IMG/VR virus record: IMGVR_UViG_3300048573_000214
Location: 1 to 27,399 of that record
Reading direction: 5' to 3' (one strand)
DNA length: 27,399 nucleotides
DNA from: a virus
The notes beneath the pieces are model-generated. The model searched no databases, was not told the origin of the DNA, and was given only the letters and a program-made list of their open reading frames with translations. Below, one piece after another: positions 6,955-25,315 of the stretch (positions within the stretch are counted from its first letter, which is position 1; every line of letters begins with the position of its first letter). The translations under genes and the position numbers were made by a program.

Positions 6955-7848
6955 ATGCACATTATTACAAACAAAGTCGATTTTTATATTACCAATGTTT
7001 GTAATTTAACGTGCGATCGTTGCAATCGATTCAACAACCATAATTTTCGTGGTTGGCAGAATTGGAAAGACTACGAAGCTCAGTACGAGCAGTGGGGCAA
7101 TCTAGTCCAACTGACTGCTGCTACTATCATGGGCGGCGAACCTTTTCTGAACCCCACGTTAGGCAACTGGGTACAAGGTATCAATCGTATATTTGGTATC
7201 GAAGTCCAAGTCTTGACCAATGGCACTCGATTCAAACAGGCATCCGGGCTGTATGAGAAACTGCTGTATCGGTCGCCGCGCACAGGCGCAATGAATCATA
7301 TTGGAGTAAGTCTACATAATCTTGCTGACCAGCAGCAACTGCTCCAAGATGTTAGAGATTTTTTTCCTGTGCCCTTTAAAGAGTACCACAAAGGGCATGC
7401 TGAGAACACCTGGAACTCGGATTGGCACTTTGTTGACGATAACGGAGTAATGATTAATGTGTACATTGTTAATCAATTTGGTGCTGCTGCAATACGTCCT
7501 GGACTTACCACAATCAACCAATCTCAGTTTTTCCTACACAACAGCGACCCAGACAACGCGCATAGTGCTTGTACATTTGCTAGATTCAAATCATATCACT
7601 ACATCCGCGGAAGATTGTACAAATGTGGGCCAGTGGCGCTGATGCCTGAATTTGATCAGCAATTCAACTTGCAGATTTCTGACTCAGATCGCGCACTGCT
7701 AAAGTCATACAAGTCATTGGGCGTTGATAATTTTGAAGAATTCCACCAAGAATTCTTCCAAAAGTTAGATCAACCTATTGCACAATGTAAATTTTGCCCT
7801 TCGCGTTCAACAATAAAGCTAATATCGCCTAATAGAAAAGGCCTGTGA
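6955..7848 (+). CDS. Radical SAM protein with C-terminal SPASM/twitch-like cysteines
   Basis: A 297-residue protein. The canonical CX3CX2C (C16, C20, C23; CNLTCDRC) binds the catalytic 4Fe-4S cluster, and GGEP at 60-63 is the SAM-contact motif. C206, C224, C278 and C281 near the C-terminus form a pattern like SPASM/twitch domains, which bind an auxiliary Fe-S cluster and are common in peptide-modifying and dehydrogenating enzymes. The substrate is unknown. It overlaps by one base (TGATG) the next gene, a glycosyltransferase-like protein, so the two probably act together. The ATG at 6955 is preferred to TTG 6952. No Shine-Dalgarno is visible. A second radical SAM protein lies at 22873. Confidence 0.88.
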   Translation: MHIITNKVDFYITNVCNLTCDRCNRFNNHNFRGWQNWKDYEAQYEQWGNLVQLTAATIMGGEPFLNPTLGNWVQGINRIFGIEVQVLTNGTRFKQASGLYEKLLYRSPRTGAMNHIGVSLHNLADQQQLLQDVRDFFPVPFKEYHKGHAENTWNSDWHFVDDNGVMINVYIVNQFGAAAIRPGLTTINQSQFFLHNSDPDNAHSACTFARFKSYHYIRGRLYKCGPVALMPEFDQQFNLQISDSDRALLKSYKSLGVDNFEEFHQEFFQKLDQPIAQCKFCPSRSTIKLISPNRKGL

Positions 7849-8918
7849 TGTTGTTTAAGGATCTGTTCTATCAAACACAACAAGGAGAAATATTCTTAAA
7901 GAGTGGCTGCATGCGACAAGAGCATGTTTTGGCAAACTACTTTTGTAAAACATTACGCAAGTTGAGTTACTCGACTACTGATCCAATGAAACGGATCTGG
8001 ACAAGACACGACAAAACTGTAATTGTGTGTTTGACAGATGATTTTAGTATATGTGACGCTGACCTGTCGGAGTCTCCTCGCCGATGGTTTAGTGATAGTA
8101 CTATTGTAATTACGGACAATTTAATCAATTATAAAGCCGACTACAACGTGATTCGGTTGCCTGCTAATTATTTTGGAGTGTTTAGCTATCGGCCAGCCCT
8201 GCAGAAATTTTTACCAACTCATAGATTCCATTTGTCAGTAAACCGGCTTGATCCTATTAGACAATTGGTATTGCTTGAGTTGATTGTGCAAAGTGGCGGG
8301 TTTGAGACGTTGCAACAAGATCTTGTTAATTTTAACGCAAGAGCCACACCAGCAACTAATGCCACGACGCAAAGTGTGCAGCAAAATTTTGTAAAACATT
8401 GGCAACAGGTAGATGCACATTATGCAGGTGTGTACGATCAACATTGGGACACGGTAGTAAATGCCATGCCTATTCGCAATCATGATCTCACAATTGAGCA
8501 GGCTGGGTTGAACGCATACCTGAACTTAGTGGTTGAAACATATTCCGGCAACACTACTATAACATTTAGTGAAAAGATATTCCGGGCATTGGTAACTCCG
8601 GCACCTTGGACCTTGTTTGCAGCAACAGGTGCGGTTGGATACCTGACAGAGTTAGGCTTTGATGTCCTGTCAGACATCGTGGATCATTCTTACGATTTGC
8701 ACGTACAAGACACCTGGCCGGGAAACTCTAAAATAGTAAACTATATTTCTGCCAGTATCAGTAACTACCAGCAACTTAAACAGCTTGATTTTGATACTTT
8801 GGCAACTAGATGCAAACAAGCAGCAGAGCATAATCAACAATTGTTGGCTGCAATGAAAAAACAGTGGCCTGCTAGTTTTGCAGAGTGGCTACCAGATGTG
8901 ATGGCGCAGATTACATAA
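7848..8918 (+). CDS. Glycosyltransferase-like protein (tentative)
   Basis: A 356-residue protein. The most recognisable part is at about 239-285: TFSEKIFRALVTPAPW, then GAVGYLTELGF and DHSYD. This resembles the C-terminal nucleotide-sugar-binding half of exostosin- or fucosyltransferase-type proteins (pattern S/TEKxFK/R-P-P-G-YL-GF). The N-terminal half is unlike anything I recognise. The ATG at 7848 overlaps the radical SAM stop by one base. A plausible role is sugar transfer to a virion protein or cell-surface glycan, but the family assignment rests on one motif region. The stop codon lies inside the late promoter of gp13. Confidence 0.5.
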   Translation: MLFKDLFYQTQQGEIFLKSGCMRQEHVLANYFCKTLRKLSYSTTDPMKRIWTRHDKTVIVCLTDDFSICDADLSESPRRWFSDSTIVITDNLINYKADYNVIRLPANYFGVFSYRPALQKFLPTHRFHLSVNRLDPIRQLVLLELIVQSGGFETLQQDLVNFNARATPATNATTQSVQQNFVKHWQQVDAHYAGVYDQHWDTVVNAMPIRNHDLTIEQAGLNAYLNLVVETYSGNTTITFSEKIFRALVTPAPWTLFAATGAVGYLTELGFDVLSDIVDHSYDLHVQDTWPGNSKIVNYISASISNYQQLKQLDFDTLATRCKQAAEHNQQLLAAMKKQWPASFAEWLPDVMAQIT

Positions 8919-8921
8919 ATA
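8914..8921 (+). promoter_or_regulatory. Late promoter for gp13
   Basis: CATAAATA, one mismatch from the T4 late -10 box, overlaps the stop codon of the upstream gene (TAA 8916-8918). The predicted +1 near 8927 lies inside the 5' arm of the hairpin at 8920-8942. Confidence 0.6.
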
Positions 8922-8942
8922 TAAGGAACGGAGTTCCTTATA
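8920..8942 (+). promoter_or_regulatory. Hairpin over the gp13 translation start
   Basis: Perfect 10-bp stem (arms 8920-8929 and 8933-8942) with a GGA loop. The 3' arm includes the A of the gp13 ATG (8942), and the GGAG ribosome binding site (8930-8933) is in the loop and stem. In read-through mRNA it should block the start; in mRNA from the late promoter most of the 5' arm would be missing. Confidence 0.6.
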
Positions 8943-9703
8943 TGGCCGAAAATACACTACCCTTGCTCAAGCAAAATCTTATCGAATATGTTGGCTTGAC
9001 ATTAGGCAATCAAATTATTGATCTTGAACTAGATCCCGCACACTTTGAAGCTGCGTATCAAAAAACTATTGGTACTTTCCGCCAGAGAAGCAATGCTGCG
9101 TACGAAGAAGCTTATATTTTTATGGAGTTGATTCAGGATCAAAACATTTATACATTACCTCAGGAAGTTACTAGCGTAAGACAAATCTTTCGTAGAACGT
9201 TTGGAGACGCAACAGGCCCGTTTGCTTCAAACTTTGATCCGTTTGCGCAGGCTAGTATCAACGTTTATCTAATGAACTTTAACGTAGCAGGCGGCCTTGC
9301 TACCTATGATTTTTACAGCCAGTATGTGGAACTGGCTGCCAGGATGTTTGGCGGATTTATGAACTATACATGGAATCCTGTAACTAAAAAATTGCAACTG
9401 ATACGCGATCCAAAAGGCACCGGTGAAAACGTGCTGCTGTGGGCCTGGCAACTTAAACCAGAAATACAATTGTTAAGTGACTATCAGATTTCTCAATGGA
9501 TACGTGACTACATGGTAGCAGCATCTAAAATGATTATCGGCGAAGCTCGTGAAAAGTTTTCTACTATTGCTGGCCCGCAAGGCGGCGGCAGTTTGAATGG
9601 TACTGCGATGAAAGCCGAAGCGCAAACGCAAATGGATGCACTGATTGAGCAACTAAAGATGTATGTAGATGGTTCTCAACCGTTGACTTTTGTAATCGGT
9701 TAA
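8942..9703 (+). CDS. 13: Neck protein, gp13-like
   Basis: A 253-residue protein resembling T4 gp13 (309 residues), which closes the packaged head together with gp14. Recognisable segments are the helical N-terminus (LLKQNLIEYVGLTLG, LELDPAHFEAAYQKTI), IYTLPQEVTSVRQIFRR, and a C-terminal stretch with LLSDYQISQWIRDYMVAASK followed by GEAREKFS and GPQGGG, typical of the cyanophage gp13 family. The ATG at 8942 has GGAG eight bases upstream. It ends with an overlapping TAATG shared with an SGNH hydrolase. gp13 sits on the plus strand away from gp14 and gp15, unlike T4. Confidence 0.82.
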   Translation: MAENTLPLLKQNLIEYVGLTLGNQIIDLELDPAHFEAAYQKTIGTFRQRSNAAYEEAYIFMELIQDQNIYTLPQEVTSVRQIFRRTFGDATGPFASNFDPFAQASINVYLMNFNVAGGLATYDFYSQYVELAARMFGGFMNYTWNPVTKKLQLIRDPKGTGENVLLWAWQLKPEIQLLSDYQISQWIRDYMVAASKMIIGEAREKFSTIAGPQGGGSLNGTAMKAEAQTQMDALIEQLKMYVDGSQPLTFVIG

Positions 9704-10422
9704 TGGCTCGTACACTGGTTATAGGTTGCAGTTTTGTGTCAAGATTGCAACACCGGCAATCTAGTGACATGGTAGTAAATCATGCTCACTATCATATTAT
9801 GGACAGTCCTGGCTCGGGCAATCAGGCAATTGCAGCCAGGACAATTTATCAGCTAAGTCAAGAAACTTACGATCGAGTGGTGGTATTGTGGTCTGGCGTA
9901 AACAGACTAGACTTCCCTGTAAGTGACGAGCTACAGCGCAATCATGACGCTATCAATACTGATTGGACAGCATCCTGCAATATTGGCAGAGCAGCTTGGT
10001 ATCACTCCGGTGGTTTTTTGGGTACAGGTATATTTGGTAACATACCAGAAGCTGTGCAGATATTTTTACGGGCACAGTATTTAGGGTTTGATCCCGATTC
10101 TGCATACTTGAGCGAGCTCACTTTGATGAGCATTGTAAATGTGCAAAATGCATTAAAAGCAATGAACATTGATTATCAAATGGCTTTTATCTACAACACT
10201 GTTCACGGTGATGTTGGTAAACAACAGGAACACAGCCATGGTCGGTTGAACCTGGACTCGGATTGGAATCGAATGATTGACTGGAGCCGATTTCAGCTGG
10301 ACAGCAATCCGTATGATTGGGCAAAACACCAGAACCGACTTGAGCCTGACAACTATCATCCTACCAGAAACGCCATGATTGAGTGGTTTAGACAACAACT
10401 CGACATTGACTTGACCCAGTAA
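9703..10422 (+). CDS. SGNH/GDSL-type hydrolase (first copy)
   Basis: A 239-residue protein with the SGNH landmarks in order: GCSF at 8-11 (nucleophile S10), GSGN at 37-40 (block II/III Gly and Asn), WSGVNR at 63-68, and D216-x2-H219 in DNYHPTR near the C-terminus. SGNH enzymes are esterases, lipases or O-deacetylases; in phages they often act on acetylated polysaccharide. The substrate is unknown. No signal peptide is seen. It overlaps gp13 by one base and so is likely expressed late. The sequence carries the promoter of the following nucleotide operon at its 3' end. A paralogous fold is encoded at 24527. Confidence 0.8.
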   Translation: MARTLVIGCSFVSRLQHRQSSDMVVNHAHYHIMDSPGSGNQAIAARTIYQLSQETYDRVVVLWSGVNRLDFPVSDELQRNHDAINTDWTASCNIGRAAWYHSGGFLGTGIFGNIPEAVQIFLRAQYLGFDPDSAYLSELTLMSIVNVQNALKAMNIDYQMAFIYNTVHGDVGKQQEHSHGRLNLDSDWNRMIDWSRFQLDSNPYDWAKHQNRLEPDNYHPTRNAMIEWFRQQLDIDLTQ

Positions 10423-10434
10423 AACTGCTATAAT
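10406..10434 (+). promoter_or_regulatory. Sigma-70 promoter with palindromic extended -10
   Basis: TTGACT (10406-10411), a 17-nt spacer and TATAAT (10429-10434), with CTGC before the -10 as in the other two early promoters. The -10 sits in a 17-bp palindrome (10424-10440: ACTGCTAT, A, ATAGCAGT). The predicted +1 at 10441 is the A of the next ATG. Confidence 0.83.
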
Positions 10435-10440
10435 AGCAGT
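10424..10440. promoter_or_regulatory. Palindrome over the -10 box: possible operator
   Basis: ACTGCTAT and ATAGCAGT are perfect inverted arms around a single A, covering the -10 region and reaching the start codon. A dimeric repressor bound here would block RNA polymerase. The other two early promoters carry only the left half (CTGCTATAAT). Confidence 0.45.
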
Positions 10441-10965
10441 ATGGCAGATTTAATGATTGACTTAGAAGGACTAGCAACTGGTCCAGACACATGTATCCTC
10501 ACCATTGCAGCACAGTCATTTGACCCTTTTGGACACAGCTATTCGGGCAAATCCTACTATGCTAGGGTAACACTAGAAAGCCAGCCTGATCGGGCAATTG
10601 ATCAAGGCACTATCGAATGGTGGGCCACCCAACCGGCACATGCACGAGAAGAAGCATTTGCTGAAGACGGTCGAATTCCGCTTGATCAAGCTCTAGACGA
10701 GCTAGGCAAGCTAATTTGGCACTCCAGCCGTATCTGGGCACAGGGCCCTACATACGACATGAACATTCTAGAGCATGCTTACAAAAGCTACAACAAACCC
10801 TTGCCTTGGAAATACTATATGGTGCGAGACAGTCGCACAGTATTCAGCTTGTGGCCTGATCAACCTATCCCTCCTACTAGTCACCATGCACTAGAAGATT
10901 GTCGCAGACAAATTGGTATGCTGCAAAACACACTAAAACACCTAAACGTAAAGGCATTAAAATGA
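10441..10965 (+). CDS. DEDDh 3'-5' exonuclease (Rv2179c/RNase T-like)
   Basis: A 174-residue RNase-H-fold exonuclease. The catalytic set is visible: D7 and E9 in MIDLEG, D106 in PTYDMNIL, and H149/D153 in HHALED, giving DEDDh. The size and the MIDLE-x-L start match the compact Rv2179c-like exoribonuclease family found in many phages. It may process RNA or degrade host nucleic acid and so supply nucleotides. It is the first gene of a tightly overlapped operon with a 5'-nucleotidase and a dNMP kinase. The ATG coincides with the predicted transcription start, and no ribosome binding site is present. Confidence 0.85.
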   Translation: MADLMIDLEGLATGPDTCILTIAAQSFDPFGHSYSGKSYYARVTLESQPDRAIDQGTIEWWATQPAHAREEAFAEDGRIPLDQALDELGKLIWHSSRIWAQGPTYDMNILEHAYKSYNKPLPWKYYMVRDSRTVFSLWPDQPIPPTSHHALEDCRRQIGMLQNTLKHLNVKALK

Positions 10966-11456
10966 ACATTTATCTTGACATGGACGACGTGGTCGCTGAT
11001 TGGAAAGTCCACGCATCAAATGTGTTAGGCATGACCTGGGACGAATCAAAAGGTGAGCGTATTCCTCAGTCTGACTGGGATCGGCTCAAAAATGACGAAC
11101 GCTTTTACTTGAACTTGCCACTCAAGCCAGGTGCTCATGACCTAGTGGCTTACTGTCAAGGCCTTACTCAAGAAACCGGCGGGACGTTGAGATTCTTGTC
11201 AGCACTTCCACACGATTACTCGGTGCCTTTTGCTGCACAGGACAAAGTATGGTGGGCAGACAAGCACTTTCCTGGTATCCCTGTGTTCCTGGGCCCTTTT
11301 AGTCATGACAAATATCGGTATGTTAAAAATCCAACTGACATCCTGATTGATGATCGGCTCAGCAATTGCAGCGAATGGATCTCAGCTGGTGGCATTGCTC
11401 ATGTGTACACTACCTGGGAAAAGTGCGAAGCTTGGTTCAAGGACTTGCAAAAATGA
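10962..11456 (+). CDS. 5'(3')-deoxyribonucleotidase, HAD family
   Basis: A 164-residue HAD phosphatase. LDMDDVVADW at 5-14 is motif I (nucleophile D6, acid D8), FLSALPHD at 78-85 carries motif II (S80), and TDILIDDR at 125-132 is motif IV (D130, D131). This is the NT5C/YorS type, removing phosphate from deoxynucleoside monophosphates. The start ATG overlaps the exonuclease stop by 4 nt (ATGA), and an AAGG lies upstream in the preceding gene. It is unusual beside a dNMP kinase because the two act in opposite directions; together they may trim the dNMP pool composition. Early expression is inferred. Confidence 0.83.
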   Translation: MNIYLDMDDVVADWKVHASNVLGMTWDESKGERIPQSDWDRLKNDERFYLNLPLKPGAHDLVAYCQGLTQETGGTLRFLSALPHDYSVPFAAQDKVWWADKHFPGIPVFLGPFSHDKYRYVKNPTDILIDDRLSNCSEWISAGGIAHVYTTWEKCEAWFKDLQK

Positions 11457-12025
11457 AATCACTACCAAAACTGCTGATTATTGGCAATGCTCGCCACGGC
11501 AAAGATACTGTTTGTGATATCCTCAAAGAAGAATTTGGATATAACTTCAGATCCAGCTCGGACTTTTGTGCTGAAAAATTCATCTATGCTGCATTAAAAG
11601 ACAAGTACGGATACAGCACTTACGAACAGTGCTTTGAAGATCGACACAATCATCGAGCTGAGTGGTACGACATGATTCATGACTATTGCCGTGATGACTA
11701 TGCTAGACTGGGCAGGGAGATTTTTGCCGAAAACGAAATCTACTGCGGCTTGCGTAACAAAGCAGAATTTCACGCAATGCGCAATACCCAGGTGTTTGAT
11801 TATACTATCTGGGTTGATCGCAGTGATCACCTGCCTGCTGAAGACAAGTCTAGCATGAGCCTAGAAATCTGGATGGCTGACTATGTGATTGACAACAACG
11901 GTACCCTGGCAGATTTGCAGCGCAACACCCACGAGCTGGTTAAACGTCTGGCAGCAGATCACCAGCACGCCATACAGAATCAGATTTTGATAAATCGACT
12001 TCGCAGTTACGGCACACGGTTTTGA
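11453..12025 (+). CDS. Deoxynucleoside monophosphate kinase-like P-loop protein
   Basis: A 190-residue protein with a Walker A motif at 11-19 (GNARHGKDT), where K17-D18-T19 is the form common in phage dNMP kinases such as T4 gp1. The family phosphorylates dNMPs to dNDPs for phage DNA synthesis. Length is somewhat shorter than T4 gp1 (241 residues). The ATG at 11453 overlaps the upstream stop by 4 nt. Its last 86 bases overlap, tail to tail, the antisense HNH/zinc gene. A related adenylate-kinase-like function cannot be excluded. Confidence 0.75.
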   Translation: MKSLPKLLIIGNARHGKDTVCDILKEEFGYNFRSSSDFCAEKFIYAALKDKYGYSTYEQCFEDRHNHRAEWYDMIHDYCRDDYARLGREIFAENEIYCGLRNKAEFHAMRNTQVFDYTIWVDRSDHLPAEDKSSMSLEIWMADYVIDNNGTLADLQRNTHELVKRLAADHQHAIQNQILINRLRSYGTRF

Positions 12026-12287
12026 GATTTTTTTGATCGCAATGAGCTAGATTTCCGTCCACATGATATACCAGCATTTGTGCTGAGTATTTGGCTCTGA
12101 AGCCACACCTATCGCATACCATCTTTTTCTTATACCCAGCTGCTTCCCAGCTGGGTTTTCTTTTGGCCAATCCTTTTCCCTTGCGGATGCAGTTCTCACA
12201 TCGACTACGATAATGAACAACATCGTCGCGTCGGTAGTTTACAGCGCAAGGCCGTTGTCCACAAACAGCACATATGGGTCTTTTCAT
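11940..12287 (-). CDS. Zinc-binding HNH-like protein
   Basis: A 115-residue basic protein with four CxxC pairs (C6/C9, C30/C33, C58/C61, C92/C95). Between the last two pairs is H75-x-D77-x-N79 followed by N87, close to the HNH nuclease core (YHVDGNL, CDQKNLKTVC). It could be a small HNH endonuclease or a zinc-ribbon nucleic-acid-binding protein. The ATG at 12287 is chosen over the upstream candidate at 12332 because it is the first ATG after a TATAAATA box. It is a lone minus-strand gene between plus-strand blocks and overlaps the dNMP kinase 3' end by 86 bp. Not obviously a homing endonuclease, given its size. Confidence 0.68.
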   Translation of the reverse strand: MKRPICAVCGQRPCAVNYRRDDVVHYRSRCENCIRKGKGLAKRKPSWEAAGYKKKMVCDRCGFRAKYSAQMLVYHVDGNLAHCDQKNLKTVCRNCEVDLSKSDSVWRAGDLLPDV

Positions 12288-12291
12288 GCAG

Positions 12292-12299
12292 TATTTATA
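12292..12299 (-). promoter_or_regulatory. Late promoter for the HNH-like gene
   Basis: A perfect TATAAATA on the minus strand, only 4 nt (CTGC) before the ATG at 12287, with no ribosome binding site. It diverges from the gp18 late promoter 50 bp away. Confidence 0.55.
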
Positions 12300-12339
12300 G
12301 GTGGACCTTTGCAAAGGGCGGTGTAGAGCCACCTTTTTT
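12299..12339 (+). terminator. Possible terminator upstream of gp18
   Basis: Outer arms AGGTGG (12299-12304) and CCACCT (12329-12334) enclose an inner palindrome CCTTTGCAAAGG (12306-12317), followed by a T6 run. It would stop read-through from the early nucleotide operon before the gp18 late promoter. The branched structure makes this less certain than a simple stem. Confidence 0.45.
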
Positions 12340-12348
12340 GAATATACC

Positions 12349-12356
12349 TATAAATA
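12349..12356 (+). promoter_or_regulatory. Late promoter for gp18
   Basis: A perfect TATAAATA box, the T4 late -10 element, 27 nt before the gp18 ATG. The leader includes AAAAGGAAA as ribosome binding site. This is the best-formed late promoter in the window and serves the most abundant tail protein. Confidence 0.75.
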
Positions 12357-12383
12357 TCTACAACTTGAAAAGGAAACCATAAC

Positions 12384-15300
12384 ATGGCTTTAATCTCTCC
12401 AGGCGTAGAAGTAAATGTAATCGACGAAAGTCAATATATTCCTTCCGCAGTTAATACTATACCTTACTTTGTTGTTGCTTCTGCACAGAACAAAGTGTCT
12501 AGCGATGGTGTTACTGTTGCTGCTGGTACCACTGCTGCAAACGCTAACAAAACTTATCTGATCACAAGTCAGCGTGAATTGGCAGCAACATTCGGTGTGC
12601 CGTTCTTCTATAGTACCACAACTGGTACTCCTATCAACGGTTACGAACTCAACGAGTACGGTTTGCTTGCAGCATACTCGGCGCTGGGAGTAACTAACCG
12701 TGCATACGTTCAACGTGTGGATATTGATTTGACTGAACTTACAGCAAGTTTAACACGCCCGGTTGGGTCTGCAGCCGATGGAACATATTGGTTAGACACT
12801 GTTAATTCTAGCTGGGGTATTTTTGAATGGAATCAAACTACCAACGCATTTACAACTCAAACGCCCATCTTGATCACCAGCGCTGCTGATGTTGAGGATG
12901 CACTGAACGGCGATTATACCCCTTTGAACACAGTTGGTATGATTGGCAATTATGCAGTAGTGTCTATTGGCAATGTTATCATTGGCTATTACAAAACCAC
13001 TTCTAACGTTTGGGTGCAAGTTGGATCAGAAGCCTGGCAAACTGCTTGGCCTACCCTGACAGGTACCAACAGCCCTAGCAGCCTGACTGTTGGCAACAAC
13101 ATGTTTATCAACGGCAACTTGGTTACTGTTGGCGTAACCAACACAGTTGCAGGATTTGCAGCAGTGATCAACTCGGCTAGCATCCCCGGAGTAACTGCTT
13201 CAGCAGTGTCGGGCAAGTTGGCAATTTATGCTGACGCTAATGCTACCAATGATGGATCCACTGCCACTAATGGTGTGGTGTCGATTGAACCAGGACCAAA
13301 CTCAGGCACAGCACTGTTAGCAGCGCTGGGCATTACCTCTAATGAATACTATGCTCCGGTATATTTCCCCGGTTACAGTTACCAAAGTCCACGTTGGAGA
13401 AGCACTGATACTGTACCTCGCCCTACAGGCAGCGTATGGAACAACGTTAGCGCTGCCAACAACGGCCTTAGCTTGTCGTTTAAAAAATACAGCTCTGCAC
13501 TTGGTGTTTGGGTAGCACAATCGGTTCCTGCTTTTGCAAATGATATATCAGCATTTGGCACCCTTGACCCATCGGTTGGCGGCAAAAATATTCCAGTTGG
13601 CACAACCTACGTTCAGTATGATGCTCAGCAATATTTGACTGAGCCAAACAGTTCTTTTAACTTTTTGATTCTTGAGCGCACAGCATTGGGTCAAGCTCTG
13701 TACACAGGAACAACAGTTCCTACCGGGGCAGCATTCACTGTTGGTAACAGCTTTTTGTTGTCGGCAACAACTCAGACAAATCCTAATCCGCTAAACGTTG
13801 CAACTGTAACAATTGGTGGAACAGGCACAGTGAGTGATTTTGTTGCAGCCGTAAGCGCGGCAAATGTACCTCACGTGACAGCTAGTGTAAATTCTGCAGG
13901 CAATATAGTGTTAACTCACGACCAAGGCGGAACAATTATCTTAGAAAACGTCACTGGGGCACCGTTGTCAACAGCTGGCTTTACTTTGAGCACCCCAAAA
14001 GCACGAGAATCTAGCACTATCCTTAATTCTATTGTGTTTAGTAACTTTGTAACTACTGAGTTGTTTAATTACACTGCTAGCGACACTGCACCTGACCAGG
14101 ACCCGGCCAACGGTCGCTTGTGGTTCTATAGCGCTGTTAGTGAAACTGACATCATGATTCAAGACAACGGTTCTTGGAGAGGTTATCAGTTGGTTACCAA
14201 TGATGTGCGCGGCTTTGATCTTACTTTGACCAACGCCAGCGGTCCTATTATTGCTGCTACAGAACCTACCACACAAACTGATGCTAGCGAAAGTCCATTG
14301 CAGTATGGAGATCTGTGGATCGATTCCAGCGATCTTGAAAGCTATCCAAAGATTTATCGTTGGGAACCGGTGAGTGGAGTTGATCAGTGGGTTGCAGTAA
14401 ACACTACAGACCAAGTTACCGAAAACGGTGTACTGTTTGCAGACGCACGTTGGGCACCAAACGGAACTACTGATCCTATTGCAGATGCTTTCCCTACTAT
14501 CGAAAGCTTGTTAACTAGCGACTATCTTGATCTTGACGCACCAAGTCCTGCACTGTACCCACAGGGTATGCTGTTATGGAACACCCGTCGTTCAGGATAC
14601 AACGTTAAGAGTTTCCAAAGAAACTACTTTAATGCAGCTTCGTATCCTGATGATGTGTTGCCAGCAGTTACCAGCACCTGGCTCACAGCCAGCGGCAACA
14701 AAGCCGACGGTTCTATGTACTCTGGTCGTCAAGCACAACGTAAAATGGTTGTGGCAGCAATGAAGTCCGGTATTGACACCAGCACTGCTGCTCGTGAAGA
14801 ACAGAATGGCTTTAATATCATTGCTGCTCCTGCATACCCAGAGTTAACACCAAACATGATTGCACTCAGCAACGAGCGCAACAACACACTGTTTGTGGTT
14901 GCTGACACCCCGATGCGCCTTGGTGCAACTGGTAACGAGCTGGTCACTTGGGCAACCAACAACAACGGCGAAGGCTTGCCAACAGAAGACGGTAACTCAG
15001 CAACCAGTAACTACGCTGGCGCATTCTACCCAAGCTGCTTGACAACAGACCTAGGTGGTAACACAGTCGTAGCTCCTCCAAGCCACATGATGGTTCGTAC
15101 TATCTTGCGCAGCGATGCAGTGAGCTATCCATGGTTGGCACCAGCTGGTACACGCCGTGGTGTTGTTGACAACGCTACAGCAATTGGTTACATTGATTCA
15201 GCTACTGGCGAGTTCCAACAAATTGGTGTGAGCCAAAGCGTGCGTGACATCTTGTATGAGCGTAACATCAACCCAATTACCTTTATTCCTGGCGTTGGTA

Positions 15301-18301: not shown

Positions 18302-18304
18302 GCC

Positions 18305-18312: not shown

Positions 18313-18316
18313 TGGC

Positions 18317-18820: not shown

Positions 18821-18837
18821 GAGCATAGGATAATCAC

Positions 18838-19446
18838 ATGAAACCATTTTCAAAATATCTAGCCGAATCAGAAAGAACCTACAACTATCGTATCAAGATG
18901 GTTGGCGACGTTCCTGCCGGCTTTGTCAAAGACTTAGAAGGCAAACTTGCTCAGTTTGATGTTGTATCAATTAGCAAACCCAAGACAAGCCCAGTGCGCA
19001 AGGAAGTTCCGGACTTTCCTGCATTTCCGAACCAAAGCATGACTATTATGGATGTAGAGTTCAAGTACCCTGCAATTGAGCCACAGATCAAGCAGTTGGC
19101 ACAGTTGCTGGGCATGGACCCTGACAGACTGATCATGAGCACAACTCCGTACGAAGATAGTCTTAACAAAGAAAGTGCCAAGATTGGCACAGAAAACAAA
19201 GACCTGCTCAAAGACACCAATTATCCAGCAGATGATGCTGAACAACGTGCTTTGAGCAAGGACTACAGCGCCGAACCGCATGATCATGTGGTATTGAAAA
19301 ACGCTTATCGTTCAGATTTCACCGTGGCTGGTGGCAAAACTCCAGCAGCTAAAACTACAAATGATTTACCACAAGGTACCAAGAGTCCTTTTGCTAACAT
19401 CAAGCGTCCACCAAAGCCAGCTACTGGCGCCAACCCAAGAGGATAA
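18838..19446 (+). CDS. Probable head-associated protein with capsid-targeting-like N-terminus
   Basis: A 202-residue protein starting MKPFSKYLAES, which resembles the capsid-targeting propeptide of T4 internal proteins and ends in LAE, a prohead-protease-type cleavage site. A compact segment follows (YNYRIKMVGDVPAGFVKDLE, MTIMDVEFKYPAIEPQIKQLAQLLG), then a disordered Pro/Lys-rich tail (FANIKRPPKPATG). I recognise related hypotheticals in aquatic T4-like phages but no function. Packing into the prohead and processing by a gp21-like protease are inference. The ATG has ATAGGA upstream. Confidence 0.68.
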   Translation: MKPFSKYLAESERTYNYRIKMVGDVPAGFVKDLEGKLAQFDVVSISKPKTSPVRKEVPDFPAFPNQSMTIMDVEFKYPAIEPQIKQLAQLLGMDPDRLIMSTTPYEDSLNKESAKIGTENKDLLKDTNYPADDAEQRALSKDYSAEPHDHVVLKNAYRSDFTVAGGKTPAAKTTNDLPQGTKSPFANIKRPPKPATGANPRG

Positions 19447-19450
19447 CCCG

Positions 19451-21172
19451 ATGACATTTTTTTACAATCTAAACAAGAAGCTGGACGAGATCCGTGCTAC
19501 TCCTAGTACTACACACAGTCAGTTAAACGAACGTGCTAGTAACAAGCCTGTTGAAGAAGGCTTTGGCGATATGGCTCGCAAGGTGGGCGGCGCAGTAAAG
19601 AAAGCAGCTGGCAAAGCACTTGATACTCTGGGACACGGATCTGACCAAGACATGATTCGTGACTTGCAGAAAAAGTCTGGAATGCCACAAACTGGTTTGA
19701 AGCCAGGTAGCGAACCAAATCCCAAGCAGGTCAAGGAAAAGATGAATCCGGCCAAAGCCAAGAGCTTTGCTGCACTAGCCGAACCCAAAGACAAAATCAC
19801 TTTTGCTGACAAGATTGCAGGAGCCAAAAAAGAAGTTGACGAAATGCTGGGTGATGTTGCTGCCGAAGCAATGAAATCTGCACTCGGTGGCGGCCGCGGC
19901 CGTAATGCTGAAATGGACGAAGAAGCCAGCCAAGGCAATGCATTTACTGCACACAAACGACCCAAGGTTGAAAAGCCAGCAGTGGGTTCTGTCACCCACG
20001 GACGCAAGCATGATGTGGAAGAAGTTCCTGGTGGCCGTAGAGTTACTCGTCGTACAGACACCGCTGGTATCAGTGTTGGCGCCGATGACGAAGCTGCACA
20101 AAGCGGCGAAAAGCGCGGTCGTGGACGTCCAAAAGGTCCTGCTAAAGCACCTGAGCGTGTGACTGGCGGAGCTACTAAACACAAAGGTGGTCGCAAAGCA
20201 GTTGAAGAAGGCGACAACGAAAGCGACGAAATCAAACAAGCCATGGCTATGTTGAAGAAGGCCGGCTACAAAGTAAGCAAGGCAGCTGACGGTGCTGAAC
20301 AAGTTGACGAGAAAGCAGTAAGCAAGAAGCAACAAAAGTTCATGGGCATGGTCCATGCAACACAAAAGGGTGAAAAAGCTCCTTCAAAAGAAGTTGCTAA
20401 AGTTGCCAAGACAATGAAGAAGGGCGATGCAGAAGATTTTGCAAGCACCAAGCACAAAGGCTTGCCTGAAAAGAAAAAGCCTGAGGGCAAGAAAAAAGAA
20501 GTTGAAGAAACCTCTGACAGCACACCAAGCAAGAGTGGCGGCGGCTTCACATTTGGTGGCGGCATCTACGACAGCTTGAATCGTGATCTTGAAAACATGA
20601 TTGCTGAAAATATGAATCAATTGACTGAGAGCATGAATGTTAGCATGAACATCAGCAACGACGAACAAGGTGGCCCTCGTCAAAGCCTTACAGTAACTGC
20701 CACTGATGAAGATGCAATGATGTTAGGGCAATTGCTCAAGAGTGCTGGCCTAGGTGGCAGCGAAGCTGGCGGCTGCGGCTGCGGTTCAAGCCCGTGCAGT
20801 TGCGGCAGCAACGCTGAAGCAGTTGATGAGAATCAACCAGACTATCCCACCAACACAGAAGTCAGCAATGACCCATTCCAGTACAGTGGCGGCATCAACA
20901 AGCCCAAGTCAACTGGACAAACCACAGTGCCTGTTATTGCTGGACAAGAAGATCGTGAAGAAACCTATGCTAGCGAAGAAGAAGATGCTATCAAGCGCAT
21001 GATGGAAATGGCCGGTATTGCCGAAGCCAAGGGTAAAAAGCCCGACTTTCTAGATGTGGACAAAGATGGAGACAAAGCAGAGCCATTTGCAAAAGCATCC
21101 AAAGACAAAGAAGAAGTCGACGAGAGCATTTTTGCAATGACTCGTAACTTGTGGAAGTCATACAAAGGTTAA
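19451..21172 (+). CDS. Large disordered multi-motif protein with DUF3008-like segment and AT-hook
   Basis: A 573-residue, highly charged, low-complexity protein. In order: a basic Ala/Lys N-terminal third; an AT-hook-like RGRGRPKG at 222-229; a DUF3008-like segment at about 291-342 (SKKQQKFMGMVHATQKG, DFASTKHKGLPEKK); an ordered segment with QSLTVTATDEDAMMLGQLLKSAG; a Cys cluster at about 440-452 (CGCGSSPCSCG); and an EF-hand-like loop at 535-545 (DVDKDGDKAEP). Several (L/I)xE sites (LAE, IAE, LTE, IAE) could be cut by a prohead protease. It starts at ATG 19451, 5 nt after the previous gene. A DNA-binding internal capsid or scaffold-core protein is the favoured inference; function is not established. 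Confidence 0.72.
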   Translation: MTFFYNLNKKLDEIRATPSTTHSQLNERASNKPVEEGFGDMARKVGGAVKKAAGKALDTLGHGSDQDMIRDLQKKSGMPQTGLKPGSEPNPKQVKEKMNPAKAKSFAALAEPKDKITFADKIAGAKKEVDEMLGDVAAEAMKSALGGGRGRNAEMDEEASQGNAFTAHKRPKVEKPAVGSVTHGRKHDVEEVPGGRRVTRRTDTAGISVGADDEAAQSGEKRGRGRPKGPAKAPERVTGGATKHKGGRKAVEEGDNESDEIKQAMAMLKKAGYKVSKAADGAEQVDEKAVSKKQQKFMGMVHATQKGEKAPSKEVAKVAKTMKKGDAEDFASTKHKGLPEKKKPEGKKKEVEETSDSTPSKSGGGFTFGGGIYDSLNRDLENMIAENMNQLTESMNVSMNISNDEQGGPRQSLTVTATDEDAMMLGQLLKSAGLGGSEAGGCGCGSSPCSCGSNAEAVDENQPDYPTNTEVSNDPFQYSGGINKPKSTGQTTVPVIAGQEDREETYASEEEDAIKRMMEMAGIAEAKGKKPDFLDVDKDGDKAEPFAKASKDKEEVDESIFAMTRNLWKSYKG

Positions 21173-21173
21173 T

Positions 21174-21356
21174 ATGAGCAATATGATGCGATCTTATAGC
21201 GAGCTGGCAGCAGAAATTGCCACTCGCAATGCCAACAATTACGTTCCTCCGGCTATTCCTACAGTGAAGCAAACTCCTGTGGAAATCCCCGGAGTAATGT
21301 ACCAATCACGTGAGCTGTTCCAGCCAGTGGTGGCACAACCTCGGGACAACAAGTAA
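21174..21356 (+). CDS. Small protein of unknown function
   Basis: A 60-residue protein. The N-terminus (MMRSYSELAAEIATRNA) is a helix with an LAAE site. The rest is Pro-rich (YVPPAIPTV, VEIPGVMYQ) and probably extended. It starts one base after the upstream stop and shares TAATG with the next gene, so it lies inside the late operon. It could be a virion linker or minor head protein, without direct evidence. Confidence 0.6.
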   Translation: MSNMMRSYSELAAEIATRNANNYVPPAIPTVKQTPVEIPGVMYQSRELFQPVVAQPRDNK

Positions 21357-21646
21357 TGGCAAACGTTTACACTTCTTTGGCCAATGCTACAGTCTACACA
21401 GACAAGCTGAGTATTGCCACAGGTAATACTGCGGTAACATATCAAGTTTATGCAGTGGCACTAGGTACAGGCACTCCTGCGGGCAATTTGTATTCTTCTG
21501 CGCTACAGATTCCTGCCAACACTGTGTTTGAAACATATTCTGGCGCCGGTAACAAAGTAACAGTGACTGGTGCCAACTGGACTGCTACTGAACTTGGTAC
21601 TGCTAGCTCTGCAACAGCTAGCATTTATAACGCGGCTGGTAACTGA
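21356..21646 (+). CDS. Small beta-rich protein, possible virion decoration
   Basis: A 96-residue protein rich in Thr, Ala, Gly and Val (VYTSLANATVYTDKLSIATG, KVTVTGANWTATELG). The pattern predicts a small beta-sandwich of the kind seen in phage head-decoration or fibre-tip proteins. There are no cysteines or catalytic motifs. It overlaps the previous gene by one base and ends 2 nt before the next. The assignment as a structural protein is inferred from composition and place. Confidence 0.6.
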   Translation: MANVYTSLANATVYTDKLSIATGNTAVTYQVYAVALGTGTPAGNLYSSALQIPANTVFETYSGAGNKVTVTGANWTATELGTASSATASIYNAAGN

Positions 21647-21648
21647 GC

Positions 21649-22023
21649 ATGAGAGCACAAGAGTTTGTCACTGAAGCACGACAAGGCAAAATTAGCAAAC
21701 GTAATCAATCTGCCACTGTGGGATTGAACACGTTTCACGACAGCCAACGAGCCAATAGTGACTATACTCTGAATCGTGTAATGATGGCAGTGGCCATGGC
21801 AGATGGTTCCGAAAAACCCATTGACATGGATGCCTACAGCTGGGTAGGCAAGGAACGTACAGCTCACCCGTACACAGACGTAGAACAAAAAATGCTCAAA
21901 CAGGCATTTAAAGCAGCTGGTGCAGAGTACAGTGATGTGAACCGCGGTGATCTAGACAGCGAAGAATTAAACAGTACCAACAAGCAAAGTCCTGTACGTG
22001 CGTTCAAAGGCTATCCTAGATGA
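21649..22023 (+). CDS. Internal-capsid-protein candidate A
   Basis: A 124-residue protein. MRAQEFVTEARQG is very close in pattern to the T4 IPIII capsid-targeting sequence (MKTYQEFIAEA), predicting import into the prohead and cleavage after VTE. The body contains TLNRVMMAVAMADGSEKP and DAYSWVGKERTAHPYTDVEQ, which I have seen in related phage hypotheticals. The last residues, QSPVRAFKGYPR, are almost repeated at the end of the next protein (QSPVKGFKGYPR). It overlaps the next gene by 4 nt. The role after cleavage is unknown. Confidence 0.72.
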   Translation: MRAQEFVTEARQGKISKRNQSATVGLNTFHDSQRANSDYTLNRVMMAVAMADGSEKPIDMDAYSWVGKERTAHPYTDVEQKMLKQAFKAAGAEYSDVNRGDLDSEELNSTNKQSPVRAFKGYPR

Positions 22024-22406
22024 GAGCTCGAGAGTTTATTACAGAACAGCGAGAGCTGCCTCCTGAAACAAAAGATCCCATGCGCTATACCTACACATTA
22101 CCTGGGTTAAGTGCAGCAGACCCGTACAAATCATATCGTATGGGAGTTGCATTGGCAAGGGCTCGTAGCGATTATCGCAAAGACAATATAAATCCATACA
22201 TGCCAGAATGGTCGGCAGAAACTACATTTGGAGAACATGCTGTGGTTGCTGGTTTTAATTCTGGTATCGGTCAGCTGATTGACTCTGCGCTCAAGATGAC
22301 AGGAACCCCTGGGGGTAAGAAACTGGTCTCGACACCCGCAAGTGATGAGCCTTCATTTGTTACAACACAAAGCCCTGTAAAAGGATTCAAAGGTTATCCT
22401 AGATGA
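22020..22406 (+). CDS. Internal-capsid-protein candidate B
   Basis: A 128-residue protein with the same end motifs as the protein before it: N-terminal MRAREFITEQR (cleavage site ITE) and C-terminal QSPVKGFKGYPR. The middle is unrelated by eye (DPMRYTYTLPGLSAADPYKSYRM, NSGIGQLIDSALKM). Shared ends with different cores suggest that both are handled by the same machinery: N-terminus for prohead targeting, C-terminus for an unknown partner. It overlaps both neighbours by 4 nt (ATGA), so the three genes should be made together. Confidence 0.7.
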   Translation: MRAREFITEQRELPPETKDPMRYTYTLPGLSAADPYKSYRMGVALARARSDYRKDNINPYMPEWSAETTFGEHAVVAGFNSGIGQLIDSALKMTGTPGGKKLVSTPASDEPSFVTTQSPVKGFKGYPR

Positions 22407-22840
22407 AGACACTGCTGGCCTTGTTGCTTGTGGTGCCTTGTTTGGTATTTGCACAACCCAAACAAAAACTCGGTGTAACCTACGATGCGGCAATCACTAG
22501 AGTAATCGACGGGGACACGGTGGTTATCCAGGCCACCTGGTTGCCCCATCCACTTAAACCAGAACTTGGCATTCGTGTGTTTGGAGTAGATACTCCTGAA
22601 AAGGGCTTCCGTGCGCAATGTGCCAACGAAGCACAGCTTGGTGAAGCAGCTACTGCATTTACCAAAGCGCAGATAAATGCTGCAACCCGACGACAAGTTG
22701 TTTTGATGGATTGGGACAAATACGGCGGACGTGTACTTGGAGACGTTTTACTAAATGGGAAAAGTTTGCGCAGTATGCTAATTGCTAATGGATTCGCCCG
22801 CGAGTATTATGGCGAAGCTAAATCTAGTTGGTGTAATTAA
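22403..22840 (+). CDS. Secreted staphylococcal-nuclease-like (thermonuclease) protein
   Basis: A 145-residue protein. Residues 1-17 are a typical signal peptide (KTLLALLLVVPCLVFA, cleavage near A17). The SNase core has all catalytic positions: D38 in IDGDT, R58 in GIRVFGVD, D63 and E66 in DTPE, and R110 in YGGRVLG, equivalent to D21, R35, D40, E43 and R87 of the Staphylococcus enzyme. Such enzymes use Ca2+ to cut DNA and RNA. A phage nuclease sent to the periplasm or outside could degrade competing or incoming DNA. It shares an ATGA overlap with a probable capsid protein and is thus late. Confidence 0.9.
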   Translation: MKTLLALLLVVPCLVFAQPKQKLGVTYDAAITRVIDGDTVVIQATWLPHPLKPELGIRVFGVDTPEKGFRAQCANEAQLGEAATAFTKAQINAATRRQVVLMDWDKYGGRVLGDVLLNGKSLRSMLIANGFAREYYGEAKSSWCN

Positions 22841-22860
22841 TTTTTCAGCAATAGCAGACA

Positions 22861-22868
22861 TGTAAATA
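22861..22868 (+). promoter_or_regulatory. Late-type TAAATA box before second radical SAM gene
   Basis: TGTAAATA, 4 nt (CTAC) before the ATG at 22873, in the 32-bp gap after the nuclease gene. There is no Shine-Dalgarno sequence. Layout is the same as at 6943, 12292 (minus) and 18305. Confidence 0.45.
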
Positions 22869-22872
22869 CTAC

Positions 22873-24015
22873 ATGTCCAATTTCTTTTGTGCTGCCCCTT
22901 GGCGCGGCCTACATATCAATCCTCAAGGCAGTATAAAGACCTGCTGTGCTGGCAATCCGCACATGTTAGGCAACCTCAACGATCTTGATATTTCTCAAGC
23001 ACTTAACAGCGCAAAAGCGCAAGAAATACGAGCTAGTTTGTCGCAAGGCAAGCCGCACGACTATTGCAGCAATTGTGTAAAAGCCGAGCGTTTTGGCGCC
23101 GAAAGCGAGAGGCATTGGCATAATCGGCTGAGCCCAGATATCGATTATGCCACAGCAGGTGATCAGTATCACTACCCTGTTTTAGTCGATGTGCGTTGGA
23201 ATACCACTTGTAATCTAAGCTGTAACTATTGTGACCCTTCGAGCAGTTCCAAATGGGCTAGCTTAAAACAAATACCCTTCAAAAGCCAAAGCCGTCCATA
23301 TTATGAACAAGTGTGTGACTTTTTAGAGCAACATAAAAGTCATATTCATGAAGTTGCATTGGTAGGCGGAGAACCGCTATTGTTGCCTGAAAATGAACGA
23401 CTGCTAGATGTAATACCTGAAGATTGCATTGTAACATTGATTACCAACATGACTCAAGATCTAGAAAACAACAAGATCTTTAAGAAGCTGTCAAAAAGAA
23501 AAAAAGTTGGCTGGAGCATGAGTTTTGACAACATTGGGCAGCACTTTGAATATGTCAGACACGGCAGCAAATGGGAAATTTTATTAGAAAATCTGCAGCG
23601 AGTCAAAGAGTTGTTTGCTACCCAAGAGCACTGGGGTGGCATTCATGCAGTGTACAATTTATACAACGCTACCCGCTTGGTAGAATTTAAACAATTTGCA
23701 CAGCAGCAAGGGTTGAGTATTACCTGGATGAATTTGTTCGGCCCCGAAGCGCTGGATCCGTTTGTACACGGTCCAGAAGTGGCCAAACTAGCAGCACAGC
23801 AAATAGAAAAACTACAAGAGCAAAATGCATTTGGTCCTGCAGAAATTGGGTTCTTTGCACAGGCGCTTGACAAATATCGTAATACTGATGAGCAGCCTCG
23901 GACAATTAAAACCAAATTTCAAGTTTTTACTCACAGTATTGAAAACAAATACCACCCAGATACCAAAGGTCAATTTGCACAGCTTTGGCCAGAACTAGCA
24001 CATCTATGCATATAA
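22873..24015 (+). CDS. Radical SAM protein with N-terminal SPASM/twitch-like domain
   Basis: A 380-residue protein. Unusually, the auxiliary-cluster-type cysteines come first: FCAAPW (C6), IKTCCAG (C24, C25) and YCSNC (C65, C68). The catalytic CX3CX2C follows (C112, C116, C119; CNLSCNYC), then GGEP at 164-167. This order is that of the twitch-domain radical SAM proteins found in aquatic phages and some bacterial gene clusters. The reaction is unknown; candidates are peptide or sugar modification. It overlaps the following 2OG oxygenase gene by 10 nt, so the two oxidative enzymes are coupled. Confidence 0.9.
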   Translation: MSNFFCAAPWRGLHINPQGSIKTCCAGNPHMLGNLNDLDISQALNSAKAQEIRASLSQGKPHDYCSNCVKAERFGAESERHWHNRLSPDIDYATAGDQYHYPVLVDVRWNTTCNLSCNYCDPSSSSKWASLKQIPFKSQSRPYYEQVCDFLEQHKSHIHEVALVGGEPLLLPENERLLDVIPEDCIVTLITNMTQDLENNKIFKKLSKRKKVGWSMSFDNIGQHFEYVRHGSKWEILLENLQRVKELFATQEHWGGIHAVYNLYNATRLVEFKQFAQQQGLSITWMNLFGPEALDPFVHGPEVAKLAAQQIEKLQEQNAFGPAEIGFFAQALDKYRNTDEQPRTIKTKFQVFTHSIENKYHPDTKGQFAQLWPELAHLCI

Positions 24016-24545
24016 CGCCAGTTGACAACGAGCTCAATCTGTTCAGAGTTGAGAATGTATTTTCTCAAGATTTAGTAAGTCAAATACTAGCAACTGATTG
24101 GCTCAATATACCGTGGCACCGCCAAGAAGGCCAGGAGAGTTGGTCGCGCCGTCGAGTTGACGAAGCAGCGTTGCCTTGGATCAAACAGTGGCACGCACAA
24201 ATAAGCGCCAAATGGAATAGCATTCAGCAGCAGCTGGGGATGTCACTACAACATTATTGCGGGACTGCTTTCTGGATTGATGAACCGGGATTTATATGTA
24301 ATATGCACACCGATGGCGAATTGCCCGGCGGTATGCAGTTAATATGGCAAGGCACTGGTACTAGTTTTTATTGGAACAACAATACCGAATCGTTACGGTA
24401 CCAAACACCGGCTTGTACAAATGCGGGCTATATCATGATCAACCGAGCCGACAGTGCTGGTTACCGACGCTTGCTATGGCATGCAATGCTGACGCCAGTG
24501 GAAAATTTTAGAGTCACATCCTATATATGGTTACAGCCAAAATAA
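24006..24545 (+). CDS. 2OG-Fe(II) oxygenase-like protein
   Basis: A 179-residue double-stranded beta-helix oxygenase. The iron triad is H101-x-D103 (NMHTDGELPGG) and H159 (LLWHAML); R169 (ENFRVTSYIWL) is the likely 2-oxoglutarate anchor. Family members hydroxylate or demethylate proteins, nucleic acids or small molecules. The ATG at 24006 is preferred over the upstream TTG at 23985; it overlaps the radical SAM gene by 10 nt, and its own end overlaps the SGNH hydrolase by 19 nt. Three successive overlaps imply one functional unit. Confidence 0.82.
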   Translation: MHITPVDNELNLFRVENVFSQDLVSQILATDWLNIPWHRQEGQESWSRRRVDEAALPWIKQWHAQISAKWNSIQQQLGMSLQHYCGTAFWIDEPGFICNMHTDGELPGGMQLIWQGTGTSFYWNNNTESLRYQTPACTNAGYIMINRADSAGYRRLLWHAMLTPVENFRVTSYIWLQPK

Positions 24546-25315
24546 CTAATACCACATTTGGTCCAGCACCTTGGCATTTTGGTACATATCATGCCAATAG
24601 TACACAAGAATGGATGCCAACTGATACTAAAGAACATTTTGATAACCTGATGAAAACTCCGGAACACAAAGAATATTTTTCTGAACTAGGCTGGGACAAA
24701 CCTGGTGCAATCAGCTATGATATCAATAGTGAAGGATTCCGTTCAGATGAATTTGACTATGAAACACCGTGTATGATTAGTCTAGGATGTAGTTTTACTT
24801 TTGGAACAGGGTTACCGGTTGAAACTACTTGGCCGTCTTTGGTCAGTGCTGCTACAGGATTAAAGCTAGCAAATCTGGCCTGGGGCGGCAATAGCACAGA
24901 CACATGTTTCAGACTGGCTGAATATTGGATCCCACGTCTACAGCCAAGATTGGTCACAATGCTGGCGCCACCTGACAGCCGATTCGAAGTAATATTGGAC
25001 AGTGCTCTTTCTCAGTTACCGGTTGAAGTAATCATGCCCGACTCGGACTCGTCCACTATTGATCGCAGAGACACATTTATAAAACATTGGTACTTGAACG
25101 ACGAGAACAGTAGACTTAATCAGTTGAAGAATTGTTTGGCAGTACGTCAGTTATGTTGTGAACATGATATACCTTGTTTGATTGAGCGGGCACATGATCA
25201 TGTGTACTGGGACCAAAACAAAGCCGGATATGCACGTGATTTTATGCATGCAGGCCCAGTTATTCATAAAAAAATTGCGGAGAAAATGCTTAATGGCTAT
25301 CAAACCAGGACTTGA
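24527..25315 (+). CDS. SGNH/GDSL-type hydrolase (second copy)
   Basis: A 262-residue protein. An N-terminal region (NSEGFRSDEF at about 68-77, a motif often preceding SGNH domains in sugar-modifying enzymes) is followed by GCSFTFGTG (nucleophile S89), NLAWGGNSTD (G121, N122) and D238-x2-H241 in RDFMHAG. The NxxGFRxxE-type lead-in is common in acetyl-hydrolase or acyl-esterase proteins from polysaccharide clusters. No signal peptide is visible. It overlaps the oxygenase by 19 nt and gp17 by 23 nt. It shares the fold, but little sequence by eye, with the SGNH protein at 9703. Confidence 0.82.
   Translation: MVTAKITNTTFGPAPWHFGTYHANSTQEWMPTDTKEHFDNLMKTPEHKEYFSELGWDKPGAISYDINSEGFRSDEFDYETPCMISLGCSFTFGTGLPVETTWPSLVSAATGLKLANLAWGGNSTDTCFRLAEYWIPRLQPRLVTMLAPPDSRFEVILDSALSQLPVEVIMPDSDSSTIDRRDTFIKHWYLNDENSRLNQLKNCLAVRQLCCEHDIPCLIERAHDHVYWDQNKAGYARDFMHAGPVIHKKIAEKMLNGYQTRT

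What the first reader, a model, noticed from the sequence alone, without database searches (positions are those of the whole stretch)
6955..25315. Two parallel cassettes: radical SAM plus partner plus SGNH hydrolase, inside the virion gene block
Cassette 1 is radical SAM (6955), GT-like (7848) and SGNH (9703), with gp13 between. Cassette 2 is radical SAM (22873), 2OG-Fe(II) oxygenase (24006) and SGNH (24527), with three successive overlaps running into gp17. The cysteine domain is C-terminal in one radical SAM protein and N-terminal in the other, so they are not a simple duplication. Late expression beside structural genes suggests modification of virion proteins or surface glycans rather than of metabolites. 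This is the best candidate for an undescribed system.
Basis: partly seen in the sequence, partly recalled or inferred. Interest (0 to 1): 0.66.

Follow-up and report, generated by a model that had tools for sequence, protein, structure and literature searches.

The report
Phage radical-SAM sugar-tailoring cassettes in virion operon
A large uncultivated T4-like phage carries, wedged between its virion-building genes, small swappable sets of enzymes (radical SAM, glycosyltransferase, iron oxygenase, SGNH hydrolase) that probably build or decorate a sugar, most likely on its own particle, though the target is unproven.

Summary
The genes are real. Both radical SAM proteins pass curated cut-offs; the N-terminal versus C-terminal cysteine domain and the three overlaps into gp17 are confirmed. 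X7848 has a confident GT-B-like model, 2OG keeps an invariant HxD...H...R, and both SGNH proteins keep catalytic blocks.

'Two parallel cassettes' is half right. Cassette 2 is a real module: across 58 non-redundant relatives the rSAM2-gp17 interval holds almost only 2OG, a second N-terminal-twitch radical SAM, SGNH2 and a GT, in changing combinations, and none where rSAM2 is absent (few independent losses). Cassette 1 is rSAM1 plus at most one partner, X7848 or a different SGNH; SGNH1 is distributed independently.

In related 85-364 kb contigs the same families recur, with up to ten N-twitch radical SAMs, in a cluster with a carbamoyltransferase, arginine amidinotransferase, sugar epimerase and GTs; 12 of 19 contigs encode IscU. 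A cultured cyanophage has a similar block around an rSAM1 relative.

Best reading: saccharide-tailoring enzymes made late, probably decorating virion proteins. Chemistry and acceptor are inferred. Radical-SAM-rich T4-like phages and phage glycan clusters are already reported; this modular, virion-operon arrangement I did not find described.

The parts
6955..7848 (+). rSAM1: radical SAM protein with C-terminal 4-Cys (twitch-like) domain
   Evidence: Pfam Radical_SAM above cut-off; invariant CxxxCxxC plus Cys206, 224, 278, 281
7848..8918 (+). X7848: divergent GT-B glycosyltransferase-like protein; 1-nt overlap with rSAM1
   Evidence: AF2 model pLDDT 80.5; GT-B matches, best Z 10.0 to T4 beta-glucosyltransferase and trehalose-phosphate-synthase-type GTs; found only with rSAM1 at the gp13 site
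8942..9703 (+). gp13-like neck protein (anchor gene of the site, not part of the cassette)
   Evidence: PHROG head-tail adaptor Ad2, 3e-27
9703..10422 (+). SGNH1: SGNH hydrolase-like protein, independent insertion after gp13
   Evidence: GCS, Gly39 and DxxH-type blocks; no association with rSAM1
22873..24015 (+). rSAM2: N-terminal-twitch radical SAM protein
   Evidence: NF033640 225 bits; twitch resembles BtrN; relatives at 65-83% identity in IMG/VR
24006..24545 (+). 2OG: small 2-oxoglutarate/Fe(II)-oxygenase-like protein
   Evidence: invariant HxD...H...R; no Pfam hit
24527..25315 (+). SGNH2: SGNH hydrolase-like protein, overlaps gp17
   Evidence: invariant Ser89, Gly121, D238xxH241; PDB GDSL matches with the profile
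25293..26876 (+). gp17 large terminase (anchor gene downstream of cassette 2)
   Evidence: Pfam Terminase_6N; 54% to Pseudomonas jumbo phage PA5oct

Best explanation
Cassettes 1 and 2 are interchangeable parts of a phage-encoded saccharide-tailoring toolkit placed in late virion operons. Proposed working: the twitch-type radical SAM enzymes (rSAM1, rSAM2) do a BtrN-like radical oxidation or rearrangement on a sugar or sugar-nucleotide; 2OG hydroxylates or oxidises it; the GT-B enzyme (X7848) transfers it; SGNH enzymes add or remove acyl groups. Overlap with neck and terminase genes on the same strand implies late co-expression, which suggests that the acceptor is a cytoplasmic virion protein, varied to escape recognition. 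Shown: gene families, motifs, modelled fold of X7848, modular linkage, co-occurrence with sugar genes and IscU. Inferred: radical SAM chemistry, sugar identity, acceptor, benefit.
For: X7848 GT-B-like fold. rSAM2 profile best matches the twitch of BtrN, an aminocyclitol dehydrogenase. Cassette-2 interval has a restricted vocabulary with partner turnover: on the gp17 tree rSAM2 changes 3 times, 2OG 14, SGNH2 14, second N-twitch 13; the second N-twitch protein is always with SGNH2 (19 of 19, uncorrected p = 1e-5). Radical SAM pairs with SGNH in separate places with different SGNH subfamilies. The same families recur with a GDP-fucose-synthase-like epimerase, carbamoyltransferase and amidinotransferase, and in cultured cyanophage S-SCSM2R among GTs, 2OGs, an aminotransferase and an amidinotransferase. 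IscU in 12 of 19 relatives. No Wzx flippase or initiating sugar-phosphate transferase in 19. No obvious membrane segment in the six proteins.
Against: No N-twitch radical SAM of this family has a known reaction to my knowledge; twitch/SPASM enzymes often act on peptides. BtrN similarity covers the twitch domain only. A GT-B fold does not tell the acceptor; the top match glycosylates DNA. rSAM2 dependence rests on at most three independent changes. The window itself holds no sugar-nucleotide gene. Contigs are incomplete, so absences are weak.
Confidence: 0.45

Rival explanations
1. Host-surface modification: the enzymes alter host LPS or capsule during infection, e.g. to exclude other phages.
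For: This reading was proposed for pelagimyophage GTs (PMC7029224); the sugar cluster lies near tail-fibre-like genes in two relatives (L271, L272).
Against: No Wzx, PF02397 or PF00953 gene in 19 relatives; no membrane segment in the cassette proteins; late structural operon position. Decorating existing host precursors would not need those genes.
Confidence: 0.2
2. Peptide-type modification: the radical SAM and 2OG enzymes directly modify residues of a virion protein (RiPP-like, in trans), with SGNH as an accessory.
For: Many SPASM/twitch enzymes act on peptides and several peptide maturases are weak hits; small paired proteins with a conserved C-terminus lie upstream.
Against: No precursor peptide between the overlapping genes. 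The small paired proteins also occur in loci without rSAM2. Does not explain GT, epimerase, carbamoyl- and amidinotransferase partners.
Confidence: 0.16
3. DNA base hypermodification: GT, 2OG and radical SAM build a modified base.
For: Top VIA-align match of X7848 is T4 beta-glucosyltransferase (Z 10.0).
Against: Thymidylate-synthase/dCMP-hydroxymethylase family absent in 18 of 19 relatives; GT-B matches include many protein and glycan GTs with similar Z; the genes sit in structural, not nucleotide, operons.
Confidence: 0.06
4. Permissive insertion sites: unrelated moron genes accumulate before gp17 and around gp13, and the linkage reflects the site, not a shared pathway.
For: Partners change often; SGNH1 is independent of rSAM1; few independent rSAM2 changes.
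Against: Very few other families are found in the rSAM2-gp17 interval, and the same families cluster elsewhere in these and other phages.
Confidence: 0.13

Closest known systems
N_Twi_rSAM family NF033640
   Same: rSAM2, a second radical SAM at the gp17 site (L015) and the arrayed radical SAMs tested score above its cut-off
   Different: The model name assigns no reaction; here members are arranged with 2OG, SGNH and GT in a virion operon
BtrN (2-deoxy-scyllo-inosamine dehydrogenase)
   Same: Twitch domain similarity, E 1.6e-7
   Different: BtrN twitch is C-terminal, rSAM2's is N-terminal; chemistry untested
Radical-SAM-rich T4-like marine viral genomes with IscU/ATC (Nishimura 2017, PMC5332604)
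   Same: Many radical SAM genes with IscU and A-type carrier in T4-like phages
   Different: That passage gives counts; modular cassettes at gp13 and gp17 and sugar partners are not described in it
Cyanophage and pelagimyophage LPS/glycosyltransferase clusters (PMC3037559, PMC7029224)
   Same: Phage-borne GTs, sugar enzymes, carbamoyltransferases, radical SAM cassettes
   Different: Those are described in host-recognition or tRNA-proximal regions; here enzymes are inside the neck/terminase operon
T4 beta-glucosyltransferase (GT-B)
   Same: Fold of X7848, Z 10.0 over 245 residues
   Different: 10% identity; acceptor unknown; many other GT-B enzymes score nearly as high

Membership tests
Radical SAM superfamily | CxxxCxxC motif and Pfam Radical_SAM above cut-off | tested here: met
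   rSAM1 31.8 and rSAM2 40.5 bits, cut-off 29.5; cysteines invariant
N_Twi_rSAM (NF033640) | Full-length match above cut-off with N-terminal twitch (rSAM2) | tested here: met
   225.3 bits, cut-off 170, residues 2-378
N_Twi_rSAM (NF033640) | Same for rSAM1 | tested here: not met
   16.2 bits, core only; its Cys domain is C-terminal
2OG-Fe(II) oxygenase | HxD...H metal triad and a 2OG-binding Arg | tested here: met
   H101, D103, H159, R169 invariant in 18
2OG-Fe(II) oxygenase | Match to a curated family model or known fold | tested here: inconclusive
   No significant Pfam, NCBIfam or PDB sequence hit; no fold predicted, so membership rests on the motif
SGNH hydrolase (SGNH2) | Blocks I (Ser), II (Gly) and V (DxxH) | tested here: met
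   Ser89, Gly121, D238xxH241 invariant in 24; weak PDB GDSL matches
SGNH hydrolase (SGNH2) | Block III Asn (GxND) | tested here: inconclusive
   No clear GxND; an invariant Arg152 lies about there
SGNH hydrolase (SGNH1) | Blocks I, II, III and V | tested here: met
   GCS10 and Gly39 invariant; SGxNR and YHPT blocks in most members; no Pfam hit
GT-B glycosyltransferase (X7848) | GT-B fold | tested here: met
   pLDDT 80.5 model; best-ranked matches are GT-B enzymes, though Z 8-10 is modest
GT-B glycosyltransferase (X7848) | Sugar-nucleotide transfer activity | not testable with these tools
   E230, E242, K243 invariant in 26, function untested
RiPP maturation system | Adjacent precursor peptide | tested here: not met
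   Cassette-2 genes overlap and leave no room; a precursor in trans is not excluded
Lipid-linked O-antigen/capsule pathway | Phage-encoded flippase and initiating sugar-phosphate transferase | tested here: not met
   PF01943, PF02397, PF00953 absent in 19 records; records incomplete

The most novel reading that the evidence does not exclude
These large T4-like phages build an aminoglycoside-like, radical-SAM-tailored glycan (amidino-, carbamoyl- and acyl-substituted) and attach it to their own head or neck proteins with swappable late cassettes, giving serotype-like variation of the virion surface.
Probability: 0.2. Interest if true: 0.85.

Novelty: new variant of a known kind. Interest (0 to 1): 0.52.

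Why it matters
If right, a widespread group of uncultivated aquatic phages carries an unusually large set of radical SAM enzymes and its own Fe-S scaffold to make a complex sugar, with parts embedded among neck and terminase genes. It gives the uncharacterised N-twitch radical SAM family a testable substrate class and would extend virion glycosylation to a combinatorial system.

Tried and rejected
Near-identity search in cultured phages: none. tblastn of rSAM2, 2OG, SGNH2 and an X7848 relative in 50,697 phage records: none. Bacterial genomes: only 9 distant radical SAM matches of A5. First AF2 model of X7848 with 8 rows failed (pLDDT 35); 26 rows worked. PDB sequence search with X7848 and 2OG profiles: none. 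The idea that the small CTS-like proteins (21649-22406) are rSAM2 substrates was dropped because they persist without rSAM2. SGNH1 as part of cassette 1 was dropped. Many GPCR rows in the VIA list are probably matches to fusion partners and were ignored. TATAAATA late-promoter-like sites: 3, one 28 nt upstream of gp18, not clearly above chance.

Full report
Setting. The window is a 27.4 kb viral record from a T4-like myophage; gp17 is 54% identical to that of Pseudomonas jumbo phage PA5oct. Relatives exist in IMG/VR as contigs of up to 364 kb.

Observation. rSAM1 and rSAM2 are radical SAM proteins above the Pfam cut-off. rSAM2 belongs to the N-terminal-twitch family NF033640 (225 bits), with four invariant N-terminal cysteines; rSAM1 carries its four extra cysteines at the C-terminus. 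Only the radical SAM cores align, so the two are not a simple duplication. 2OG has the invariant HxD...H...R set. SGNH2 has Ser89, Gly121 and D238xxH241 invariant in 24 sequences, including relatives about 30% identical. SGNH1 has an invariant GCS and Gly and the usual later blocks in most members. X7848 matches no family, but an AlphaFold model built on 26 sequences (pLDDT 80.5) is GT-B-like: Foldseek ranks VldE and trehalose-phosphate-synthase-type GTs first (E 3e-4) and VIA-align ranks T4 beta-glucosyltransferase first (Z 10.0, 245 residues). Z of 8-10 is modest, but the top rows are GT-B enzymes. Overlaps of 10, 19 and 23 nt run from rSAM2 through to gp17; rSAM1/X7848 and gp13/SGNH1 overlap by 1 nt. 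Against relatives the six genes have pN 0.12-0.22 and pS 0.68-0.89, so they are kept functional.

Is it a module? At the gp17 site, loci showed a small vocabulary between rSAM2 and gp17: 2OG, a second N-twitch radical SAM at about 30% identity, SGNH2 and an X7848-like GT; one lineage adds a further SGNH-like gene and an NAD-dependent epimerase. In loci found through gp17 alone, 11 of 17 with rSAM2 had 2OG and 11 of 17 had SGNH2, against 0 of 9 without rSAM2 (Fisher p = 0.002 each, not corrected for relatedness). On a gp17 tree of 58 loci rSAM2 changes 3 times, 2OG 14, SGNH2 14 and the second radical SAM 13: a stable core with fast-changing partners. The second radical SAM was always with SGNH2 (19 of 19, uncorrected p = 1e-5). 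Because rSAM2 was lost or gained so few times, its link with the partners is not independently replicated; the phylogeny-aware pair tests were too small to decide. At the gp13 site, rSAM1 occurs in 11 of 35 loci; X7848 only with rSAM1 (3 of 11 against 0 of 24, p = 0.025), and a different SGNH family (Pfam Lipase_GDSL) takes its place in others. SGNH1 is independent of rSAM1 (2 of 11 against 6 of 24, p = 1). Cassettes 1 and 2 are also separable: seven contigs that hold gp13 and a strong rSAM2 match lack a strong rSAM1 match.

The wider toolkit. Related contigs carry up to ten N-twitch radical SAM matches. In three of the stretches fetched (L269-L271) several lie in tandem with X7848-like GTs and a carbamoyltransferase (Pfam 6e-47 for L271; family found in six contigs). 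An epimerase resembling GDP-fucose synthase, an SGNH-like gene, a 2OG or an amidinotransferase (6e-15 to L-arginine:glycine and 2e-14 to inosamine-phosphate amidinotransferase) are there in one or more. IscU is found in 12 of 19 contigs, and IscU and an A-type carrier lie near radical SAM genes in L088 and L275. In cultured Synechococcus phage S-SCSM2R a 24%-identical rSAM1 relative sits among GTs, 2OGs, an aminotransferase and an amidinotransferase. The rSAM2 profile best matches BtrN, an aminocyclitol dehydrogenase (from general knowledge), through its twitch domain.

Mechanism. The common denominator is saccharide tailoring. Shown: families, motifs, one modelled fold, linkage, and the company these families keep. 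Inferred: that the radical SAMs oxidise or rearrange a sugar, that 2OG and SGNH decorate it, and that the GT transfers it. Virion proteins are my preferred acceptor because the genes overlap or abut neck and terminase genes, the proteins have no obvious membrane segment, and none of 19 contigs encodes a Wzx flippase or initiating sugar-phosphate transferase. Host-surface modification is the main rival, and was proposed for pelagimyophage GTs (PMC7029224). DNA modification is less likely: the dCMP-hydroxymethylase family is missing in 18 of 19. Direct peptide modification is possible but explains the sugar partners poorly.

Known or new. Nishimura 2017 reported a T4-like marine genome with 12 radical SAM genes and phage-encoded IscU (PMC5332604). 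Pelagimyophage radical SAM cassettes in the host-recognition region (PMC7029224) and cyanophage LPS clusters and carbamoyltransferases (PMC3037559) are also known. A full-text search of one open-access library found no paper holding radical SAM, SGNH hydrolase, phage and glycosyltransferase together; that library is partial. I therefore call it a new variant of a known kind, interest 0.52.

Limits. All close relatives are metagenome contigs; absences are weak. Catalysis, substrate and acceptor are untested. X7848's fold rests on one model. 2OG rests on motif alone.

Noticed in passing
21649-22023 and 22020-22406: Two paired small proteins with an N-terminus MRAxEF(I/V)TE like a T4 capsid-targeting/prohead-protease motif (from general knowledge) and a C-terminus SPVxxFKGYPR, both conserved across relatives; possibly packaged internal head proteins.
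   Followed up: partly
18838-19446: Another protein starting MKPFSKYLAE, also CTS-like, with a conserved C-terminus.
   Followed up: no
22403-22840: Staphylococcal-nuclease homologue with a signal-peptide-like start, directly upstream of rSAM2 in many relatives.
   Followed up: no
L269, L270, L271: Tandem arrays of N-twitch radical SAM genes with X7848-like GTs, epimerase, carbamoyltransferase and amidinotransferase genes in relatives.
   Followed up: partly
L088:8965-10421, L275:2915-4623: Phage IscU and A-type Fe-S carrier genes close to radical SAM genes.
   Followed up: partly
12349-12356: TATAAATA, T4-late-promoter-like, 28 nt upstream of the gp18 start; three sites in the window against 0.8 expected.
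   Followed up: no
2090-2524 (-): Nudix-hydrolase-like gene on the opposite strand beside tail genes, kept in many relatives; family named from sequence only.
   Followed up: no
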